Assembly: GCA_027007005.1 (NCBI GenBank)
Contig: JALTFO010000213.1
Coordinates: 1 to 48,500 of the forward strand
Direction of reading: 5' to 3'
Source of the DNA: Candidatus Bipolaricaulota bacterium
Lineage (GTDB): Bacteria > Bipolaricaulota > Bipolaricaulia > UBA7950 > UBA9294
DNA: 48,500 nt
Shown here: positions 1,281 through 27,790 of the stretch, in pieces
Layout of the letters: each line of letters begins with the position of its first letter
Numbering within the stretch: the first letter of the stretch is position 1
The notes under the pieces: generated by a model
The model's database searches: none
What the model was told of the DNA's origin: nothing
What the model saw: only the letters and a program-made list of their open reading frames with translations
Made by a program: the position numbers and the translations under genes

Positions 1281-1821
1281 AAGATGAGCATGAGTGCGTG
1301 AGTTACTAGGTCAATATACGCGGTTTGGAGAAGGAACGAAAGAGCTTGATCTTCTCCTTCTGCATCAGCTTAGCACTTTCCGTGTCACTGCGTTGCTGCT
1401 CCACCTCCTTTAAGGACTCCATCGTTACCCCCTTCTTCAGGAACTGCTCTGGTTTTGTCAGTGTTTGCAGCTTCTCAAACGGGGTAAAGTAGTCGTTGTA
1501 CTTCTTCTTGATCTTTCCCTTCTTATCCACCGTCTCCGTGGCAAACCCGCATGGACGATGGAAGTTCAGGTACTCATTGAACGTCTCCTTGGCCTGTGGA
1601 ATAAGTATTGATGAGGATATTCCACGGGCCGAGTAGAATGACTGGATCTTCGTTGCCTCCGACTGCGGAATGTGCCAGTGGCCCATGTGCTTACGAATGA
1701 TGCTGCCATTCTTTCCCTCTACCAACGCTTGGTCGTTGGTATGACGCGCTCTGCTCTTGGTGAACTCGATCAGTAGCTTGTTCAGTAGTTCCATCACTTT
1801 CTTGTTCACATACTCGCTGCC

Positions 1822-2333
1822 GTAGTACATTCGGAGGAGCAGCCACTGGCTGGGTAAGCTTCCTTGGATAGATAGATGATCTAAGGAGGTAGACAGCAAT
1901 GACTGCTCAACAAAAGTGTAACACGGAGGTTACTCTGGTGGCAATTGATGTTGCCAAGGCCTGGAATGCGGTACTGGTAGAAAAGTGTGATGGCACGCAC
2001 CAGCGTTTTCGAGTGGCGAACACCCGCGCCGACCATGATCGCCTGATGTTGTTCTTGAAGAATCAGACAGGACAGTGTCGAGTAGCGATGGAGCCAACAG
2101 GAAATTATCACCGTCCATTGGCGTACCGATTACTCAGTGAAGGATTCGAAGTACATCTGGTTTCCTCAGTGGCAGCAGCTCGGTTCCGCGAGGCAACGTT
2201 CAACTCCTGGGACAAGAATGATCCCAAGGATGCAGCGGTGATCTTGGACATGCTCAAGCAAGGCAAAGTGCTTTCCTACCATGATCCCGTGACAGCGGGG
2301 ATACACGATCTGCAGGAGATCTCCAAGACATAC
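1822..2333 (+). mobile_element. 512-bp IS110-family fragment inserted in the transposase gene
   Basis: The insert is bounded by a GT dinucleotide at 1822-1823 and again at 2334-2335. Removing it (with one GT) rebuilds the interrupted transposase frame with no base lost or gained. It carries about 75 bp of left end, then the 5' part of an IS110-type transposase gene, and ends inside that gene. IS110 elements recombine at short core dinucleotides and usually leave little or no target duplication, which fits the GT boundaries. The missing 3' two thirds of the gene means this copy is a deletion derivative that could move only in trans, if at all. Confidence 0.7.
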
Positions 2334-2342
2334 GTTATCTGA
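1899..2342 (+). pseudogene. IS110-family transposase, N-terminal domain only
   Basis: 147 codons beginning MTAQQKCNTEVTLVAIDVAK. A strong Shine-Dalgarno (AAGGAGGT) precedes the ATG. The residues IDVAK, MEPTGNYH and KNDPKDA mark the DEDD (RuvC-like) catalytic domain of IS110 transposases: Asp in the first strand, Glu in the second block, and the Asp pair in NDPKDA. The family is normally 320-420 residues with a C-terminal Tnp_20 domain holding a conserved serine; that domain is absent. The frame runs past the insertion boundary and stops at 2340-2342 in target DNA. A truncated, probably inactive gene. Confidence 0.8.
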
Positions 2343-3079
2343 GTGAAACCCATGGATGGTAAATGGATACTGTGGAAGAAGGTTGTTAAGCACCGGTACG
2401 AGGTAGTGTTCACTGATCTTCTCTACACAACCAATCACCTCCCATTGTGTCACTTCATCGATGGTATTGATGTGATATACCCCCTTCTCGCCATTGAGAT
2501 CCCCTTGATGCACCGTGTCCACTCGGATGAATCCCGGCTTACCCTGTGGGTCAGGACGGCGACGTTCACCATATTTACAGGATGATGGCTTGGTCTTCTC
2601 AATGGTCAGGGTGTGGTTGCGGTAGAATGAGCCTTGGCGTAATCGGTACAGGTGAGCAACGGAGATCTCGCTCAGTCTCTGGTACTCACTCCTACCAAAC
2701 AGGTTGTACTCTCGTTTGAAGATGGCTACGGTTGCTTTGCCTGACAACCGCTCGTTGTTGTTGTCCAGTTCCGCCAACAGGAGCTGATCATCCCGGGTAT
2801 ACTTGGTGGGGAACAAGTGTCGTTTGTAGGGCCGCACCCGTACATGACCGCTACGGCGAAACTGGGTGATGAGCCTTGTCAGTTGTGAACAAGAGATCCC
2901 AGTCATCTTCTCCATGTAACGTCTAAGCACCCCTTTCTCCAAACGTGGACGAGAACGGTACTTGTAGGAACGCAATGTACGCTCAATCCAAGCGTAGATC
3001 TCTTCCCGTGAACTTCCCTTGAACGTCAACACATCGCTCGAAGCGAGAAGTGCCTTCAGTTCGCCAATATCCATTACGC

Positions 3080-3147: not shown

Positions 3148-3255
3148 GTGATGTGACCCACGCGCTCGTGATACCAGGGCCATCTCATGCTCACCTCCCA
3201 TGAGATTCTCCCCCTCCCTTCATGCTCATCTTGTGTGAGACAACTCTGATTGACT

Positions 3256-3468
3256 ATGCCCAACACGTACACGGCGGTAACCAAGCAAGATGGTAACTGG
3301 TGGATTGGATGGATCGAAGAAGTCCCCGGCGTCAACTGCCAAGAGCGCACACGAGAAGAGCTTCTTGCCAGCCTAAAGGCGACCCTCTCCGAAGCACTTG
3401 AGTTCAATCGTCAAGATGCGATTCATGCAGCCGAGTCGGACTACACCGAAGAACCAGTCACTGTATGA
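3256..3468 (+). CDS. hicB: HicB-family antitoxin
   Basis: A 70-residue protein from ATG 3256 (an in-frame TTG at 3250 would add two residues). The pattern YTAVTKQDGNWWIGWIEEVPGVNCQERTREE is the partially degraded RNase H-like fold of HicB, in which a beta hairpin containing W-I-G-W-I-EE is followed by a helix (ELLASLKATLSEALEFN). HicB proteins bind and inhibit HicA and often repress their own promoter. It lies directly upstream of hicA and overlaps it by four bases (ATGA), so translation is coupled; the order hicB-hicA is the reverse of the classical one. No DNA-binding domain is visible at the C-terminus, which ends EEPVTV. The start lies only 23 bp from an insertion sequence end, with no strong Shine-Dalgarno. 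Confidence 0.85.
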   Translation: MPNTYTAVTKQDGNWWIGWIEEVPGVNCQERTREELLASLKATLSEALEFNRQDAIHAAESDYTEEPVTV

Positions 3469-3653
3469 AACTTAGGAAGTTCCTGAAACATCTCCGTGAA
3501 CAGGGATGCGTTCTCATCCGAGAAGGGAGCAATCACTCTTGGTGGATGAATCCATCGCAGAACAAGTGCTCGTCAGTCCCTCGCCATTCCGAGATCAGCG
3601 ATCAGTTAGCCAGAAAGATCTGCAAAGACCTAGGGATTCCCTTTAACAAGTAA
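3465..3653 (+). CDS. hicA: HicA-family mRNA interferase toxin
   Basis: 62 residues, typical for HicA. MKLRKFLKHLREQGCVLIREGSNHSWW shows the double-stranded RNA-binding-like fold with the conserved GSNH block; the histidine is the catalytic residue of the family. The C-terminal part carries VPRHSEISDQLARKICKDLGI, matching the usual V-P-x-H-x-E-I/L-x-x-G-T-L-x-x-I-L-K-D-L-G-I ending, so the domain is complete. HicA cleaves mRNA and is held inactive by HicB. Its ATG overlaps the hicB stop. Nothing suggests inactivation, although the shift of GTL to SDQ in the C-terminal motif is a small departure from the common form. Confidence 0.85.
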   Translation: MKLRKFLKHLREQGCVLIREGSNHSWWMNPSQNKCSSVPRHSEISDQLARKICKDLGIPFNK

Positions 3654-4009: not shown

Positions 4010-4267
4010 ATGCCCATCGTGAAGATCCGTACAAACCGGCAGGTCACTGTTCCCAAGGCAATATTCGATGATCTAGGCCTAAGAGAGGGAGACTTCGTTG
4101 AGGTGAGCATTCAGGGGACTGATATCGTGATTAGGCCAAAACGGCTTGTCGATATGGATGATTCTCTGAGCAGAGAAGAGGAAGAATTGGTTAAGAAGGG
4201 CTTTGAGCAGCTCAAGAATGGCGAGTACATTGCGTGGGATGATCTGAAGCATGAGCTGGACCTGTAG
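4010..4267 (+). CDS. AbrB/MazE-type antitoxin
   Basis: 85 residues. The N-terminus MPIVKIRTNRQVTVPKAIFDDLGLREGDFVEVSIQGTDIVIRPK is a SpoVT/AbrB swapped-hairpin DNA-binding domain, with the typical QVTVPKAIFDDLGL-GD pattern. The acidic C-terminal tail (about residues 48-85, SREEEELVKKGFEQLKNGEYIAWDDLKHELDL) is of the kind that wraps around and blocks a RelE-type toxin. AAGGAGGGAAG precedes the ATG. It overlaps the toxin gene by 17 bases. Its probable operator covers the -10 box upstream. The pairing of an AbrB-fold antitoxin with a RelE-fold toxin is well known. Confidence 0.85.
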   Translation: MPIVKIRTNRQVTVPKAIFDDLGLREGDFVEVSIQGTDIVIRPKRLVDMDDSLSREEEELVKKGFEQLKNGEYIAWDDLKHELDL

Positions 4268-4514
4268 ACTCTCAAATCAAGCCGCCAAGCAGTTCCGTTT
4301 GCCGAAAGACCGCCGCGGACAGATCGCACAGGCGATCGAAGAGATGGGAAGAGATCCCACAAGCGGCGATGTACGGCCAATCAAGAGCGGGAGATTCAAA
4401 GGCGCGTTACGCAAACGTGTGGGGAGTTATCGCATTGTTTTCGCTCTTGACCGGGAGAACAAGGCTGTTAATGTTGCAGCAATCATCCTGCGTACTGGAA
4501 AGACCTATCGTTAA
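4251..4514 (+). CDS. RelE/ParE-superfamily toxin
   Basis: 87 residues. MSWTCRLSNQAAKQFRLPKDRRGQIAQAIEEM gives the two N-terminal helices, and SGRFKGALRKRVGSYRIVFALDRENKAVNVAAIILRTGKTYR gives the beta sheet of the RelE fold with the basic R-x-R-VG-YR-F motif typical of ribosome-dependent mRNA interferases. The C-terminal GKTYR retains the arginine/tyrosine residues used in catalysis by RelE relatives. The start ATG at 4251 lies within the antitoxin gene, so translation is coupled. Whether the target is mRNA (RelE-like) or gyrase (ParE-like) cannot be told from sequence alone, but the YRIVF and KTYR residues favour RelE. Confidence 0.85.
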   Translation: MSWTCRLSNQAAKQFRLPKDRRGQIAQAIEEMGRDPTSGDVRPIKSGRFKGALRKRVGSYRIVFALDRENKAVNVAAIILRTGKTYR

Positions 4515-19714: not shown

Positions 19715-20695
19715 ATGTCTGCTTATCTTCTAGCTAAGATCCGCGGAAAACTATCACGCATGGTGGATGATGCTGATCTGGACCGACTTATCGGTGGTGA
19801 TCTGGACGCGGTATCACAGCGTTTGCGCACGTCAAGTTATGCAGAAGCACTCGGTGAAACATGGGACAGAGCGTCTGATCGTCTACGTCAGGCTTTCTTG
19901 GACGACGTCGCCAATCTGATACATTCCCTGTATGGGCGCGATCGCATGCTCCTTGTTGACGTACTTGCCCGGTATCGGGTGGAGAACCTGAAGATGATCA
20001 TCCGGGCTCAACTTCATCGCCTCCCATCAGATGAAGTAAAGCAACATCTGTTCTCACTCACATGGGAGGATGTTGATTACCTGCATTTGCTGGAATTGCC
20101 TGGTCTGGAAGGGGTAATCCGTGCCATGCCTTGGGTGGAGTATCGCTCCCAGATCGAGGCAGTGCACCAACAGGTGGGGGACAAGCGGGAGGTATTCCCG
20201 TACGAAACCGAGCTCGATGCGATCTACTTGAAGCGGCTGGTTCACCAGTACGAAAGTGGCCCCACAAGCGCACGTGGAATGCTGAAAAACAACGTCTTGA
20301 AAGAACTTTTTTCGTGGGCATTTCGTCTGAAGAGTTACGACCGTTCATTCCCTGAGATAGTGAATATTCTTCCAGACTTCCGGCCACTTATTCCACAGGA
20401 AGAGATGCGCCACATAGTAGAGGACAATGAAGGGTGGCGTGGTATAGGTCGCTTCTTGGGACCGGTATTGGAAGGCGAGTTGGGACAGATGGATAAGCTA
20501 GATTTGTCGGCCATCCAGGAGTTATTTGAGCGCAAGCTCATGGAAGTGATACGGGAGTCGTTCGTGATGTCTCAGTTTGGGGCGGGTATCGCTGTAGGGT
20601 ACGTATACCTTAAGGAACGTGAATTGTCGCGACTCATCGAGATCGTTGAGCGAGTGCGGGGAAACATAGAGGGAGGATCGAGTGTTCATCACTGA
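19715..20695 (+). CDS. V/A-type ATPase subunit C
   Basis: 326 residues from ATG 19715, right after the preceding TAG. The sequence MSAYLLAKIRGKLSRMVDDADLDRL and the repeated three-helix patterns (for example DVLARYRVENLKMIIRAQLHRL) match the vATP-synt_AC39 family, the funnel-shaped subunit joining the central stalk to the rotor ring. A longer frame upstream (from 19556) overlaps the first gene and is not needed. It overlaps the next gene by 14 bases. No unusual residues seen. Confidence 0.9.
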   Translation: MSAYLLAKIRGKLSRMVDDADLDRLIGGDLDAVSQRLRTSSYAEALGETWDRASDRLRQAFLDDVANLIHSLYGRDRMLLVDVLARYRVENLKMIIRAQLHRLPSDEVKQHLFSLTWEDVDYLHLLELPGLEGVIRAMPWVEYRSQIEAVHQQVGDKREVFPYETELDAIYLKRLVHQYESGPTSARGMLKNNVLKELFSWAFRLKSYDRSFPEIVNILPDFRPLIPQEEMRHIVEDNEGWRGIGRFLGPVLEGELGQMDKLDLSAIQELFERKLMEVIRESFVMSQFGAGIAVGYVYLKERELSRLIEIVERVRGNIEGGSSVHH

Positions 20696-22649
20696 TAAGA
20701 TGCACAAAGTCAGTCTATTCCTTCCTCGTGAAGATATAACGCGGTTCTGGAACGCGGTTGGACGCTTTGGCAAACTGGAACCGACCGAGCTGCGGCGTGT
20801 CTCTCGTCTACAAAAGTATCTCTCGTTCATTGACCTCGGTGACATTAGCGCGAAGTTCCGAGAGGCAGCGAGCTTCCTCAACATCGATCTTACAGCTCCC
20901 ATGGATGATCCTGCAATCACCCCGCTTTCTCCAGATGAGCTCGAGAATAAGGCGGACGAGATTTACCAAGAGCTGACTGATGCCCGTGCTCGTCTCCAGA
21001 AATTGCGTGAGGCAAGACGCTCGTTGGATAGGGAACTGGATAAACTGGTTGTTCAGGAGGCGCATCTAAGGATGCTAGAGCCCCTTGATGTCGATATCGG
21101 CGCTCTACTTCATCTGCAGCGGTTCTGTGTGCTTGCTGGCACGCTTCCCGAGGACAATCTTGATCAATTGGAGCGTAGTCTAGGCCGCTTTCCACATGCT
21201 TTGCTCCCATACCGAAACGAGAAACGCCGCTTGCAACTTCTCATCATCTGCCTAAACCAAAACCGAGATAAGATTATTAAGATCTTGGACTCTGCCTTGT
21301 TTAGGGCACTTGAGCTTCCCGAGGAATTGAAAGGGGAACCAAAAAAAGTGTTGCAGATCCTAGCGGCACACAAGGAAGAGTTGCTAGGACAAAAGCAAAG
21401 CCTGGAAGATGAGTTCTCTGCCTTCGAGTCTTGGCGTGCGGCACAGCGTACGCAGTGGGGTGACTTCATTAAGATCAACTCCGCCGTGCTTGCAACGCGT
21501 GAACGAACTGGGCAGACGCATTCCGTGGCTGTAGCTACCGGATGGGTTCCCAAGAAGGAAGTACCACGCCTGCAAACACTGGTGCGCAGTGAACCGAAGT
21601 GGGTACTGGAGAGCGAGGAGATTCCCTACGAGAAGGCGAAAGACGAGGACGGGATGACCGTGCCTAGCAGACTGCGCAATCCTGCTGTCTTTCGACCCTT
21701 TGAGGGGTTGGTGCGGTTGTACGGCGTCCCGCGGTACGGCGGGTTCGATCCGACGGTGCTGTTCACTTTGTCGTTCATTCTAATGTTTGGCATGATGTTC
21801 GGAGATCTCGGACACGGGTTCATCCTGTTCCTCTCCGGGCTGGGACTTCTGTTTTGGCCACGGCTGCGGGACGGGTTTCGACGGACCGGGTCGGTCCTCA
21901 TAGCGGTTGGGGCGTCATCGATGGTCTTCGGCACCCTGTATGGGAGCTTCTTTGGTTACGAGAAGATCATCCCCGCGGTCTGGTTCCGGCCGTTCGACGA
22001 TATCAACCGGATACTGATCTACGCGATCGCGGTTGGGGCGGCGATGATCGTCGTGGGGATACTGATCAACATCGCGAGTCTGGTCATCCAGCGGCGGTAC
22101 TTCGAGTCGATCTTCACCCGGTTCGGGTTTATCGGGCTGTTGTTCTACCTCGGGCTCCTGCTCGCCATGCGGTCGTTCATGGGCGGAGGGTTGAACCTCG
22201 GGGTGGCTCTCCTTATGTTCATCCCGCTGATCATCATGGCGTTTGAAAGGCCACTCTCCAAACTGTGGTACAAAGGGAAACTTGAGGAGGGCGAGAAGGA
22301 GAGTCCGCTTATCCGCCTCATCGTTGTCGGGGTGGATATATTCGAGACGGTGATCGTCTACTTCAGCAACTCGCTCTCGTTCATCCGTTTAGCGGCGTTC
22401 GCCCTCAACCACGTCGCTCTGTCACTGGCGATATTCCAATTGGGGAGGATACTGGAACAGATGATTGGTGGCGGAGGGGTGTTTTACATCCTGTCCATCA
22501 TCGGCGGAAATGTGCTGATCCTCGTGCTCGAGGGGGGGATCGTCGGGATTCAGACGCTGCGTCTGGAGTTCTACGAGTTCTTCTCCAAGTTCTTTGAGGC
22601 GGAAGGAACGACGTTCAGGCCGTTCAGATTAGAATACAGAAGGAGGTAA
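20682..22649 (+). CDS. V/A-type ATPase subunit I
   Basis: 655 residues from GTG 20682, with GGGAGGATCGA just upstream. Residues 1-330 form the cytoplasmic arm with long coiled coils (for example EAHLRMLEPL and KVLQILAAHKEELLGQKQSLEDE); residues 335-655 hold seven or eight membrane helices. PRYGGFDPTVLFTLSFILMFGMMFGDLGHGFILF and SNSLSFIRLAAFALNHVALSLAIF are the family signatures; the Arg in FIRLAAFALNH is the key channel arginine that faces the rotor glutamate. It carries the ion path and the stator. Composition is uniform with neighbours. It is followed three bases later by the proteolipid gene. Confidence 0.95.
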   Translation: MFITDKMHKVSLFLPREDITRFWNAVGRFGKLEPTELRRVSRLQKYLSFIDLGDISAKFREAASFLNIDLTAPMDDPAITPLSPDELENKADEIYQELTDARARLQKLREARRSLDRELDKLVVQEAHLRMLEPLDVDIGALLHLQRFCVLAGTLPEDNLDQLERSLGRFPHALLPYRNEKRRLQLLIICLNQNRDKIIKILDSALFRALELPEELKGEPKKVLQILAAHKEELLGQKQSLEDEFSAFESWRAAQRTQWGDFIKINSAVLATRERTGQTHSVAVATGWVPKKEVPRLQTLVRSEPKWVLESEEIPYEKAKDEDGMTVPSRLRNPAVFRPFEGLVRLYGVPRYGGFDPTVLFTLSFILMFGMMFGDLGHGFILFLSGLGLLFWPRLRDGFRRTGSVLIAVGASSMVFGTLYGSFFGYEKIIPAVWFRPFDDINRILIYAIAVGAAMIVVGILINIASLVIQRRYFESIFTRFGFIGLLFYLGLLLAMRSFMGGGLNLGVALLMFIPLIIMAFERPLSKLWYKGKLEEGEKESPLIRLIVVGVDIFETVIVYFSNSLSFIRLAAFALNHVALSLAIFQLGRILEQMIGGGGVFYILSIIGGNVLILVLEGGIVGIQTLRLEFYEFFSKFFEAEGTTFRPFRLEYRRR

Positions 22650-22652
22650 GGA

Positions 22653-23033
22653 ATGCGCAAAATAGTTTACGGCTTGTTGGGTTTCAATCTCGTGTTGTTT
22701 GTGGCAGGAATTGCGTTGTTCGGGTTCGCTTTGGTGAGTTACCAGCCGTGGGCATCGGCACAGACCACTACTACTGCTCCTGCCGGCAACGCACCAAGCA
22801 CAACAACTACTAGCAGTGGAGTCGGTTTAGCGTTACTAGGAGCAGCGCTATCCACCGCGGGGAGCTCGCTCGGGGCCGGGATCGCCCTGTCCGGAGTGGG
22901 GGCAGCGGCGATGGGCGCGGTGACGGAAAAACCGGAGATGTTCGGGCGAAGCCTCGTCTACGTCGGATTGGCCGAGGGGATCGCGATCTACGGGATCGTC
23001 ATCTCAATCATGATCATAGGAAAACTAGGATAG
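22653..23033 (+). CDS. V/A-type ATPase subunit K (proteolipid) with N-terminal extra segment
   Basis: 126 residues. A single helical hairpin (about 55-126) is the rotor unit: GVGLALLGAALSTAGSSLGAG as helix 1 and SLVYVGLAEGIAIYGIVISIMIIG as helix 2, with the ion-carrying Glu in GLAEG. Before it lies a hydrophobic segment (about 4-30) and a Thr/Ser/Ala-rich linker (QTTTTAPAGNAPSTTTTSSG). The segment ends WASAQ, a possible signal-peptidase site; a cleaved signal sequence is known for the Thermus proteolipid. If not cleaved, it adds a third helix. No obvious Gln or Glu stands in helix 1 at the usual sodium-ligand site, slightly favouring protons. Ribosome site AGGAGGTAAGG. Confidence 0.85.
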   Translation: MRKIVYGLLGFNLVLFVAGIALFGFALVSYQPWASAQTTTTAPAGNAPSTTTTSSGVGLALLGAALSTAGSSLGAGIALSGVGAAAMGAVTEKPEMFGRSLVYVGLAEGIAIYGIVISIMIIGKLG

Positions 23034-23035
23034 AG

Positions 23036-23350
23036 ATGACAACGCGGGACAGGATCTACGCCATCGGAAGCCGTGAAATGGTGCTCGGCTTTTCCTTACT
23101 TGGCATCGCCGGCAACACTCCGAATGGGGCGACAGAGACTGAGGCAGTGCTGCAGGAACAATTTGCCGACCCAGAGATGGCCCTGATCCTGATCGAGGAT
23201 CAGGTGGCAGCTCAGATCACGGAGACAGTGGATAATCTCCAGTTGAGCAAGCACTTTCCGCTTGTGGTGAAGATCCCAGGACCGCGTGGTCAGATAGAGG
23301 AAAGGAGCATCAAGGAATACATTGCGGGGGCGATCGGAATAAAACTATGA
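23036..23350 (+). CDS. V/A-type ATPase subunit F
   Basis: 104 residues, correct length. MTTRDRIYAIGSREMVLGFSLLGIAG with the D-x-x-GFRLAGI-like start, and DPEMALILIEDQVAAQI are typical of subunit F, the small central-stalk subunit that moves with subunit D and regulates ATP hydrolysis. The ATG is two bases after the K stop, and the stop overlaps the start of subunit E by four bases. Confidence 0.9.
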   Translation: MTTRDRIYAIGSREMVLGFSLLGIAGNTPNGATETEAVLQEQFADPEMALILIEDQVAAQITETVDNLQLSKHFPLVVKIPGPRGQIEERSIKEYIAGAIGIKL

Positions 23351-23994
23351 CAGACGTCAAGACTGCAGGAGAGATGGCCTCCCTGACCGAGCATGTGTTG
23401 CACGAGGCGCGCAAGAGTGCCGAGCGGATAATAGCACGTGCCCAGAAAGAGGCGGATAAGGTCACCTCACAAGCGCAAGAGCAAGCAAAGGCTCGCGAGG
23501 AGGATCTGGTCCATGCGGGGATGGACCAGGTGGCCCGAATACGCCGACAGATCATCTCGCAAGAGCAGCTCCATCTGAAAGAGCAGCTTCTGCGCGAGAA
23601 GTCGGAGATCCTGGGGCGGGTCATCGATAAGATCCGCGATCGCCTAGCAGCGATGTGTGCCAAGGATGGGAAGGAGTATCTTGACGTTCTCATAGGCATG
23701 GTGCAGGCCGCGCTTGCCGAAGAGGAAACTGCAAAAACAGTGATCCTCCACCTATCAGCGCAGGACATCTCCCGCTACAAGAAAGACCTTCCCAAAGCCC
23801 TTAAGGAGCAGCTGGGAATTAGTGAGGTAAAGCTTGTGCCCGAGGCGATCCGCGGTGGGGTGATTGTCGAGATCCCGGATAACCACGTGGAGATCGATAG
23901 CTCCATCTCCCAACTCCTGCGAGAGTTTACCCCTAAGGTGGAGGCCTTGGTCGAGCGGGAAATCTTTGCCCCGATCGAGGGAGGAAAAAGATGA
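23347..23994 (+). CDS. V/A-type ATPase subunit E (peripheral stalk)
   Basis: 215 residues. Residues 1-100 are a long charged coiled coil (EHVLHEARKSAERIIARAQKEADKV), and residues 110-215 the globular domain with GGVIVEIPDNHVEIDSSISQLLREF, the family's C-terminal block (GG----D-N-T---R). It pairs with the H/G subunit and fastens to subunit B. ATGA overlap with subunit F, and its stop overlaps the start of subunit A in the same way. Confidence 0.9.
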   Translation: MTDVKTAGEMASLTEHVLHEARKSAERIIARAQKEADKVTSQAQEQAKAREEDLVHAGMDQVARIRRQIISQEQLHLKEQLLREKSEILGRVIDKIRDRLAAMCAKDGKEYLDVLIGMVQAALAEEETAKTVILHLSAQDISRYKKDLPKALKEQLGISEVKLVPEAIRGGVIVEIPDNHVEIDSSISQLLREFTPKVEALVEREIFAPIEGGKR

Positions 23995-25790
23995 CACAAA
24001 AGACTGAAGAACAAACCGGAACGATCATTTACATCAATGGGCCTGTGGTTAAGGGCTCAGGGATGGCTGACGCGAACGTTATGGAGCTCGTCCACGTCTC
24101 TGATGAGCGCCTTGCCGGCGAGATTATCAACATCGATGGCGACGTAGCAACGATTCAGGTGTATGAGGATACGACCGGTCTCAAGCCAGGAGTTCCCATT
24201 TATCGTACAAATCACCCCCTCTCTGTCGAACTCGGGCCCGGTCTGGTTGGAAACGTTCTCGATGGTATTGCCCGGCCGCTCGGCGTTATTCGCGACAAGC
24301 AGGGCGTATTTATCGGCCGCGGCGTGCAGGCAGAGACGATCGATAGAGAGAAGAAATGGAAGTTTACTCCACAGGTGAAGGAGGGTGATAGCGTCGTCCC
24401 CGGACAGGTGCTAGGCACCATTCCAGAGACGCCGATCCTCGAACATCGCATCGTCGTCCCGTGGGGAATTTCGGGGAAGATCAGCTCAATCGTGCCCGAG
24501 GGAGAATACACTGTAAGCGAACAGATCACATCGATCGAGACCGAGGATGGCCCAGAGAAGGTAACAATGTTGCGCGAGTGGCCAGTGCGCCGCACGCACC
24601 CGTTGCAGAAACGGATGAAACCATCGTTGCCGTTGATCACCGGCCAGCGCGTGATCGATGCCCTCTTTCCGCTTGCCAAGGGGGGAGCGGCGGCGATCCC
24701 GGGTGGTTTTGGTGCAGGGAAGACAGTTCTGCAGCATCAACTTGCCAGTTGGTCTGACGCCGATGTTATCATCTACATCGGCTGTGGGGAACGGGGAAAC
24801 GAGATGACCGATGTCCTCGGCGAGTTTCCGAAGCTCAAGGACCCCAGAAGCGGCAGGCCGCTGATGGAGCGGACAATTCTCATTGCCAACACGTCGAACA
24901 TGCCGGTGACCGCGCGTGAGAGCTCGATTTACACAGGAGTGACGATCGGTGAGTACTTCCGTGATATGGGCTACCACGTTGCGTTGATGGCAGATTCGAC
25001 ATCCCGCTGGGCAGAGGCGGTGCGCGAAATCGCGGGAAGGCTGGAGGAGATGCCTGTTGAAGAAGGGTTCCCCGCCTACCTACCGGCGCGCTTAGCGGAG
25101 TTCTACGAGCGAGCGGGGTATGGAGAGGTCGGTCCTGACCGTTATGGCTCGATAACAATAATCGGAGCCGTCTCCCCTCCAGGGGGAGACTTCACCGAGC
25201 CGGTGACGCAGAACACGAAGCGGTTTATTCGCACGTTCTGGGCGCTCGACAAGCGCCTTGCCTTTGCCCGTCACTTTCCTGCTATCTCATGGATCGATAC
25301 CTACAGCGAGTACATCGATGAGATGGCCAAGTGGTGGAAGGAAGAGAAGAAGGTCGATTGGCGTGGTCTGCGCCAGCGGACGCTCTCTGTCTTGTCGCGG
25401 GAAAATGAGCTTGAGAAGATCGTACAGATCATTGGGCCGGATGCCCTTCCAAGCGATCAGCGCCTGATTCTGCATATTGCCTCTCTCATCAAAGAAGGGT
25501 TTCTGCAGCAGAACGCGATGGATAACATTGACCGTTATTCTACGCCAGAGAAGGAATTCAAGATGCTGGAGCTTATCGCAAAGTATGAAGATAGGGCGCA
25601 GAAGCTTGTGCAGGGAGGTCTTCCCATCTACCGCATTCAGGAGATGAAAGCAAACATCAAACTCCTTACTATGAAGCAAGAGGTCCCAGATGATAAACTC
25701 GATGAACTGGACACGATCGAGCAGGAGATGAACCAGGAGTTTGACGAGCTAGAGAAGAGCCTTGTCACAACGGCCGAGAAGAAGGGATAA
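23991..25790 (+). CDS. V/A-type ATPase catalytic subunit A
   Basis: 599 residues, full length. It has the N-terminal barrel (1-70), the non-homologous insert (about 110-190), the P-loop [12 protein letters not shown] near residue 238, and the catalytic stretch [20 protein letters not shown] with the catalytic Glu. SYSEY-like [14 protein letters not shown] and the helical C-terminus (460-599) are family features. The P-loop reads GGFGAGKT, where GPFGSGKT or GAFGCGKT are common forms. It hydrolyses or makes ATP in the head. Its last four codons are followed at once by subunit B. GAGGGAGG lies before the ATG. Confidence 0.95.
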
Positions 25791-25791
25791 G

Positions 25792-27183
25792 ATGAACGGA
25801 CGAAGGATACATTTGGGAGTTGCACGGATCTCGGGTCCGCTAGTATTCGTGAGCGGAAGACAGAACGTAAGCTACGGGGAGATCGCGGAGGTTGTTACCT
25901 CTTTTGGCGAGGTGCGCCGTGGTCGCGTGTTGATTATCGATGGCGATACCGTCGCCATCCAAGTTTTCGAGGGAACGAGTGACTTTTCATCTGCCGATAC
26001 GAAGGTGCGCTTCAGCGGCCACTCGCTGACGGTAAAGGTCTCAGAGGAGATGTTGGGGCGCGTTTTCGATGGCACGGGCAGGCCGCTCGACGGTGCTCCC
26101 GCACCGATCAGTGGCGAGGAGCGCGATATCAACGGAGCGCCGATCAACCCGGTTAGCCGAGTTTACCCGAAGAACTTCATCCAGACAGGCATCTCGGCGA
26201 TCGACGGGATGAACACGTTGATCCGCGGCCAAAAGGTACCGATCTTCTCTTCAAGTGGGCTTCCCCACAATCGCCTCGCCGCGCAGATTGTGCGCCAGGC
26301 AACGATCCCGGGCGAGGAGTCGGAGTTCGTCATCGTCTTTGTTGCCATGGGGGTGAAGCACGATGACGCCGCCTACTTTGAGGAGACGTTCCGCGAGAGT
26401 GGCGCGCTGGAGAACGTGGTCATGTTCTTAAATCTTGCCGACGACCCATCGATCGAACGAACGATCACCCCACGCGTTGCCCTTACTGTTGCCGAATATC
26501 TGGCCTTCGATCGTAACAAGCAGGTCCTTGTCGTCATGACGGACATGACCAACTACTGCGAGGCGTTGCGTGAAGTGGCGACTGCACGTGGGGATGTTCC
26601 AACAAGGAAAGGATACCCCGGCTACCTGTACAGTGATCTGGCCTCTCTCTACGAGCGCACCGGGCGCGTAATCGGCTCGGAGGGATCGATCACCCAGATT
26701 CCGATCGTCTCGATGCCGAACAACGACATCACCCATCCCGTCCCCGACCTCACGGGCTACATCACCGAGGGGCAGATCGTCCTCGATCCGAAGCTTCATC
26801 GGCAGGGGATCTACCCGCCGATCGCTGTCCTCCCGTCGCTGTCACGCCTGATGAAGGACGGTATTGGAGAGGGGTTCACGCGGGAGGATCACCCAAATGT
26901 GGCCAATCAGCTCTACGGAAGCTACGCTCGCGTGCAGCAGATCAGAAACATCGCCTCGATCATTGGTGAGGAGGAGCTCTCTGAGGTGGACAAGAGGTAT
27001 CTCAAATTTGGGGATTTCTTCGAACAGCGCTTCCTTAGCCAGGGCGATGAGAACCGGACGATCGAGCAAACGCTGGACTTGGGATGGAAGGCACTCGAAC
27101 TCCTTCCTGCGGAGGAGCTGAATCGGCTGAAGAAGGCTCAGATCGAGAAGTACTACAAACAGGAACAAGATGTCACTACTTGA
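25792..27183 (+). CDS. V/A-type ATPase subunit B
   Basis: 463 residues from ATG 25792, one base after the subunit A stop; an earlier in-frame ATG at 25762 lies inside subunit A and gives a non-family N-terminus. Typical marks are [40 protein letters not shown] in place of a working P-loop, and [18 protein letters not shown] with [20 protein letters not shown]. It forms the head with subunit A and has the non-catalytic nucleotide site. It overlaps subunit D by 14 bases. No anomalies. Confidence 0.95.
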
Positions 27184-27790
27184 TGTTCCCCCGACAAAGG
27201 CTGTCTTACTGGAGCTGAAGGAACAGCTGGCGGTCGCTAAAAGCGGCTACGGTCTGCTGGAGGAGAAGCGAGAGGTCCTCGTAAGTGAGCTGTTAAACAT
27301 AATCGACGATGCGGAGTCGTTTCGCCGAGAAGTGAATGAGCAGCTTGCGCATGCCTACGAGGTCCTGCTGCAAGCGGTGCAGGCCCTAGGCGCAGAGCAG
27401 GTAGAGCGCACTGCGCTTGCCTGTGTCACCGAGGCGCACATAACGCTCAACGAGCGGTCGGTGATGGGTGTCCCCATTCCTCTCATGAACCGCAAGATGG
27501 TGAAGCTCACTCCGCAGTACGGCCTGCTCGGCACATCGTTCGCACTTGACGAAGCGTTAAGGCGTTTCTATGATGTTTTGGAGAGGATCTTGCGCCTTGC
27601 AGAGACGGAGCGGACGGCATGGCACTTGGCAATAGAGCTTAAGAAGACGCAGCGGCGGGTGAATGCGCTGGAGAATATATTTATCCCGCAGTACGAGGAG
27701 ACGATTCGCTATATTGAGGGCAGGCTGGAGGAAGTGGAACGCGAGACAATCTTTCAAATGAAGCTTCTAAAGAGCAATAAGGGGGGCTGA
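27170..27790 (+). CDS. V/A-type ATPase subunit D (central stalk)
   Basis: 206 residues. [31 protein letters not shown] is the family signature near the N-terminus (P-T---L---K--L--A--G--LLK-KRD-L), and [21 protein letters not shown] is the second block (--E---T-RRVNALE---IP). Two long helices form the rotor shaft that turns in the A/B head. Its ATG lies in the last codons of subunit B. A universal stress protein follows after one base. Confidence 0.95.

What the first reader, a model, noticed from the sequence alone, without database searches (positions are those of the whole stretch)
1822..2333. IS110-derived 512-bp insert with exact junctions inside another transposase
The interrupted transposase frame is restored to exactly 419 codons when the insert and one GT are removed, so no target base was lost. 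Yet the insert ends in the middle of the IS110 transposase gene. A later deletion of the right half would normally also damage the target. This suggests either that a short derivative, with a right end inside the gene, moved as a unit, or that an internal deletion left a very short right end. Either would bear on how little sequence an IS110-type system needs. The left non-coding end is only about 75 bp, shorter than known IS621-type bridge RNAs.
Basis: partly seen in the sequence, partly recalled or inferred. Interest (0 to 1): 0.6.

Follow-up and report, generated by a model that had tools for sequence, protein, structure and literature searches.

The report
Jumping-gene relic inside another transposase
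The 512-bp insert is the left third of an ordinary-sized jumping gene that lost the rest later, but tracing its relatives showed that this whole group of RNA-guided jumping genes inserts almost only into the codons for the active-site Asp-Asn-Gly of other transposases.

Summary
In detail: removing 512 bp (1822-2333) restores a 418-aa, IS481-like DDE transposase, and an uninterrupted paralogue in the same genome has the same spacing. The insert is the left third of an IS110-family, IS1111-like element. Complete relatives are about 1.59 kb and end ...TTAGTAC-GT, as do two right ends in this genome. The insert stops at the only internal TACGT of the closest complete relative, so an insertion followed by a ~1.07-kb deletion between internal and terminal TAC(GT) gives exact-looking junctions without loss of target. 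No second 512-bp derivative exists in 100 genomes of the phylum, so it is not shown to move as a unit. The 75-bp left end is normal here, because the guide RNA lies at the right end.

The larger result concerns the target. In 46 of 46 relatives with both ends recognised, and in 16 of 16 plasmid copies under a looser rule, the element sits in the same phase of the Asn codon of D-N-G; nearly all are DDE transposases. All 63 elements compared carry TAGANAATG at the transposase stop codon, complementary to the target, followed by a covarying RNA structure. I found no report of this in the papers searched. RNA guidance is inferred, not tested.

The parts
1306..3074 (-). Interrupted DDE (IS481-like) transposase gene, 419 codons without the insert; insertion lies in the Asn codon of S-D-N-G-S-E-Y
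   Evidence: translation; length; uninterrupted paralogue scores rve PF00665 2e-6 and NCBIfam IS481 1.8e-14, below its cut-off
1822..1823 (+). Core dinucleotide GT at the left junction, read as the target copy (RT, wobble base of the Asn codon)
   Evidence: junction table; left cores are AT or GT in relatives
1824..1898 (+). Left non-coding end of the IS110-family element, 75 bp
   Evidence: same length in L013 and same start AGTACATT on C235 and in L013
1899..2342 (+). Truncated IS110-type transposase ORF (147 aa), N-terminal DEDD/RuvC part only; last codons come from the target
2331..2335 (+). TACGT breakpoint: TAC fits both element interior and true right terminus; GT is the core before the target sequence
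2334..2335 (+). Core GT at the right junction
   Evidence: right cores are GT in all complete relatives listed

Best explanation
A complete, about 1.6-kb IS110-family element of the IS1111-like type (guide RNA downstream of the transposase gene) inserted at its normal target, the sequence CC-RT-TRTC, which here encodes Asp-Asn-Gly of a DDE transposase. Target choice is inferred to be made by the element's RNA, whose GAUAAUG pairs with C-AT/GT-TRTC. Later about 1.07 kb was lost by a deletion between an internal TAC(GT) and the terminal TAC(GT). That removed the C-terminal domain, the RNA gene and the right end but left the target intact. The 512-bp remainder is an immobile relic. Shown: clean insertion, identity of the element, true right end, position of the target, unique junction. 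Inferred: RNA guidance, order of events, and homology-driven rather than recombinase-driven deletion.
For: Frame restored and empty paralogue. True right ends TTAGTAC-GT in the same genome on C141 and C90. C235 and C141 join into one hicB-like frame, so a copy with both true ends exists in this genome. Complete relatives L013 (1585 bp) and L103. The break is at the only internal TACGT of L013 and is among 6 of about 1535 positions with the longest (5-bp) match to the terminus. The junction is unique in 100 genomes. The target rule holds in 46/46 and 16/16 relatives.
Against: The middle of the element is not assembled in this genome, so the internal GT is inferred from L013 (81% DNA identity); L103 reads TACACA there, so the shared stretch may be only 3 bp. 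A random deletion would rarely end exactly at the terminus, which leaves room for the recombinase.
Confidence: 0.6

Rival explanations
1. The element's own recombinase made the short form, by taking the internal ...TAC-GT as a false right end, either during circle formation before insertion or in a reaction with the true right junction afterwards.
For: The right junction falls exactly at the core GT. The internal site matches 5 of 7 bases of the element's own putative donor guide GAAGTAC, which only 22 of 1570 positions equal or exceed.
Against: It matches only 3 of 8 bases of the true right terminus (504 of 1569 positions do as well), and what follows its GT is CCAGGT, not the target half TATC. 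Circle formation in ISEc11 needed target sequence on both sides (PMC11187229). No sub-terminal repeat was seen at the internal site.
Confidence: 0.28
2. A 512-bp derivative is a mobile, non-autonomous unit served in trans by complete copies.
For: Both junctions are exact; complete copies exist in the genome.
Against: One copy only in own genome and in 100 genomes of the phylum; no true right end. In the published mini-element test 46 bp of right end were used (PMC11187229).
Confidence: 0.05
3. Assembly artefact joining the left end of a repeat to an unrelated flank.
For: Fragmented MAG of 307 contigs; other copies of this element sit at contig ends.
Against: The two sides share only 3-5 bp at the junction, too little for a k-mer join; the flanks restore a reading frame to the base; no Ns.
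Confidence: 0.05

Closest known systems
IS1111 group of the IS110 family (ISEc11, ISKpn4, ISPa11; seekRNA, PMC11187229)
   Same: DEDD transposase with Transposase_20 domain in complete relatives, short left and long right non-coding end, RNA gene downstream, no target duplication, one target in one orientation
   Different: Target is the Asp-Asn-Gly codon block of DDE transposases; short sub-terminal repeats with a different end asymmetry from the 7/3 bp reported
IS621 bridge RNA system (IS110 group, PMC11208160)
   Same: Structured RNA with an internal loop whose two strands match the element ends; variable core base on the target side
   Different: IS621 RNA lies in the left end and targets REP sequences; here the RNA lies in the right end and the target guide precedes the main hairpin
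ISRel25 (Rhizobium etli p42d)
   Same: Named member in the same sequence group; carries TAGATAATG and sits in a DNG codon
   Different: About 51% identical at protein level to the Burkholderia query; no paper on it in the library
IS4321/IS5075 (IS1111 group, target Tn21-type inverted repeats; title quoted in the references of PMC11208160, detail from own knowledge)
   Same: IS1111-type elements aimed at other mobile elements
   Different: They aim at terminal repeats, not at the coding sequence of the transposase active site

Membership tests
IS110 family | N-terminal DEDD (RuvC) domain PF01548 | tested here: met
   Window ORF 3.5e-18; full-length relative L023 6.2e-24
IS110 family | C-terminal Transposase_20 PF02371 | tested here: met
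   Present in relative L023 (2.8e-24); absent from the truncated window copy; NCBIfam NF033542 8.9e-63 for L023
IS1111 group | Long non-coding end downstream of the transposase gene | tested here: met
   L013: 75 bp left, about 220 bp right
IS1111 group | Sub-terminal inverted repeats (7-17 bp or 11-13 bp in the papers) | tested here: inconclusive
   Best repeats 6-14 bp, often at one fixed offset, mean score 6.0 against 2.5 shuffled; weak in L013. Extension lengths do not follow 7/3 bp
IS1111 group | No target duplication, specific target, one orientation | tested here: met
IS1111 group | RNA with segments complementary to both target strands | tested here: inconclusive
   Top-strand complement found in all 63; a bottom-strand match for the left target half was not found
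IS1111 group | Circular intermediate and RNA bound to the transposase | not testable with these tools
   needs experiment

The most novel reading that the evidence does not exclude
A widespread group of IS110-family elements uses a short RNA guide spelling GAU-AAU-G (Asp-Asn-Gly), with U opposite both wobble positions, to insert into the active-site codons of DDE transposases of several IS families. It thereby inactivates competing mobile elements and tolerates their synonymous variation.
Probability: 0.75. Interest if true: 0.7.

Novelty: new variant of a known kind. Interest (0 to 1): 0.55.

Why it matters
The relic itself is ordinary. The group it belongs to gives a natural case of an RNA-guided recombinase whose target is conserved at the level of a protein motif, so the guide must cope with codon degeneracy. 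It is a ready test of wobble pairing in bridge or seekRNA targeting, and a case of transposons that specialise on disabling other transposons. The core base and end-guide covariation across 63 copies is also a natural data set for how these RNAs recognise their ends.

Tried and rejected
A mobile 512-bp family: not found. The short left end as sign of a minimal RNA: rejected, the RNA is at the other end. Rfam: no family for this RNA. CTYGGRYC after the guide as a second target guide: looked like part of a hairpin instead, not pursued. Target restricted to DDE genes by sequence alone: rejected, since exceptions exist (hicB-like gene in this genome, a TonB receptor in L112, L103), and of six intact ARST-N5-CCRTTRTC sites in the genome only two, apparently duplicates, lie in a DDE gene. 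IMG/VR gave only two distant relatives.

Full report
What was checked. The window is the whole contig C213 of a 2.67-Mb, 307-contig MAG. A relative with 100% match to a named record (L013, Candidatus Bipolaricaulota CSMAG_1235) falls in the same family, so the window is from Bipolaricaulota. Removing 1822-2333 restores a 418-aa minus-strand protein plus stop. A paralogue on contig C69 lacks the insert and has identical spacing. The interrupted protein is a divergent DDE transposase: its paralogue scores 2e-6 against rve and 1.8e-14 against the IS481 model, both below curated cut-offs, and the insertion is in the Asn codon of SDNGSEY.

What the insert is. It holds a 75-bp non-coding end and the N-terminal part of an IS110-type transposase. 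The same left end recurs at 99% on contig C235, which stops 230 bp into the element. Right ends of the same element lie at the ends of contigs C141 and C90 and read GATGTTAGTAC-GT before the flank. The flank left of the C235 copy and the flank right of the C141 copy join to a continuous hicB-like frame, so these two contigs border one copy with both true ends. Complete relatives are L013 (1585 bp) and L103 (1581 bp), each with a frameshift in the transposase gene (read from the DNA).

How the 512-bp form arose. In L013 the gene continues AAGACATACGTCCAGG where the window has AAGACATACGT-TATCTG. TACGT occurs twice in the L013 element, at the break and at the right terminus. Only 6 of about 1535 internal positions have a 5-bp match to the terminus, and the break is one of them. 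A deletion between the two copies leaves the target complete, so exact junctions do not need a mobile short form. The recombinase cannot be excluded: the internal site fits 5 of 7 bases of the element's own putative donor guide, better than most positions, but it lacks the target half and matches the true terminus poorly. Siddiquee et al. (PMC11187229) found circle formation to need target sequence on both sides. The junction was not found again in 100 genomes of the phylum.

The target rule. For 80 relatives from genome contigs I looked for both ends and asked whether the joined flanks encode DNG with the junction in the same codon position. With a strict motif DNG.E[FY], 34 of 53 loci with a right-end motif passed, and shifting the flanks by 1 to 10 bases gave 0 or 1. 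With DNG and a tighter left rule, 46 loci passed; the loci that did not pass had one or both ends unrecognised under that rule, apart from L103. That right-end rule demanded TTRTC, so it was partly circular. In 18 plasmid loci I used a right-end rule without that demand: 16 had both ends and all 16 were in DNG. Fifteen of these look like DDE transposases by motif context; one (L112) is a TonB-dependent receptor whose gene happens to contain the motif. The reconstructed proteins were identified by motif context and neighbouring annotation, not each by Pfam. L103 and the hicB-like copy are not DNG in a DDE gene but still match C-RT-TRTC. In the 63 elements tabulated (46 + 16 + L103), flanks are fixed as C C R T | T R T C except one T. 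The three non-DDE targets also share A at -13 and T at -10, as in the DDE targets (read).

The RNA. All 63 carry TAGANAATG close to the transposase stop codon, while other IS110-type fragments of this genome do not. Allowing rU-dG pairs, 62 of 63 pair at all seven positions with their own target. Conservation by descent explains part of this. Downstream lies a structure with four helices: 171 cells changed on both sides against 59.6 in shuffles, and paired cells fall from 91% to 38-54% when slid. Relatedness inflates the shuffle test, the slide test less so. Its internal loop has AGxAC on one strand, where x equals the variable base of the right terminus TAGxACGT in 57 of 60 scored copies, and xCTATGG on the other, where x pairs with the third base of the left end in 60 of 62 and by wobble in the other two. 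L111 breaks the usual coupling of the two, so they are not merely one clade difference. I read these as end guides; this is inference.

Relation to known systems. NCBIfam names L023 an IS110 family RNA-guided transposase. Position of the RNA gene and end lengths fit the IS1111 group as described in PMC11187229 and PMC11208160; the sub-terminal repeats are short and differently placed. ISRel25 belongs here. No paper in the library describing Asp-Asn-Gly-codon targeting was found; subscription literature and ISfinder were not available, so prior notice cannot be excluded.

Limits. No reads; contamination of the MAG is given as 6.6%. The relatives were selected by similarity to the window protein, so how far the rule extends in the IS110 family is not known. 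Preference for DDE genes beyond the DNA motif may reflect longer pairing, purging of other insertions, or both.

Noticed in passing
L005 (C235) 1500-1760 and L101 (C141) reverse strand: The two contigs border one complete copy of the element inserted in a hicB-like antitoxin gene followed by a hicA-like ORF; they can be joined in the assembly.
   Followed up: partly
window 3250-3653 and 4010-4514, + strand: Two toxin-antitoxin-like gene pairs (HicB/HicA-like and AbrB/RelE-like by appearance) lie directly beside the interrupted transposase; not searched against families.
   Followed up: no
window about 1267-1305 and 3215-3260: Similar sequences in inverted order (AAGATGAGCATGA) near both ends of the interrupted transposase, probably the inverted repeats of that host element; the first also appears beside the C69 paralogue.
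   Followed up: no
window 20682-27790: Gene cluster that looks like a V/A-type ATPase operon (subunits I, E, A, B, D by appearance).
   Followed up: no
L013 3100-3201: Partial group II intron D1-D4 match, below the gathering score.
   Followed up: no
C176:10335-10351 (L128): An intact full-length match to the target motif lies in a phosphoglucosamine-mutase-like gene at ASHNEPADNGIKFF, an apparent uninterrupted off-target site.
   Followed up: no
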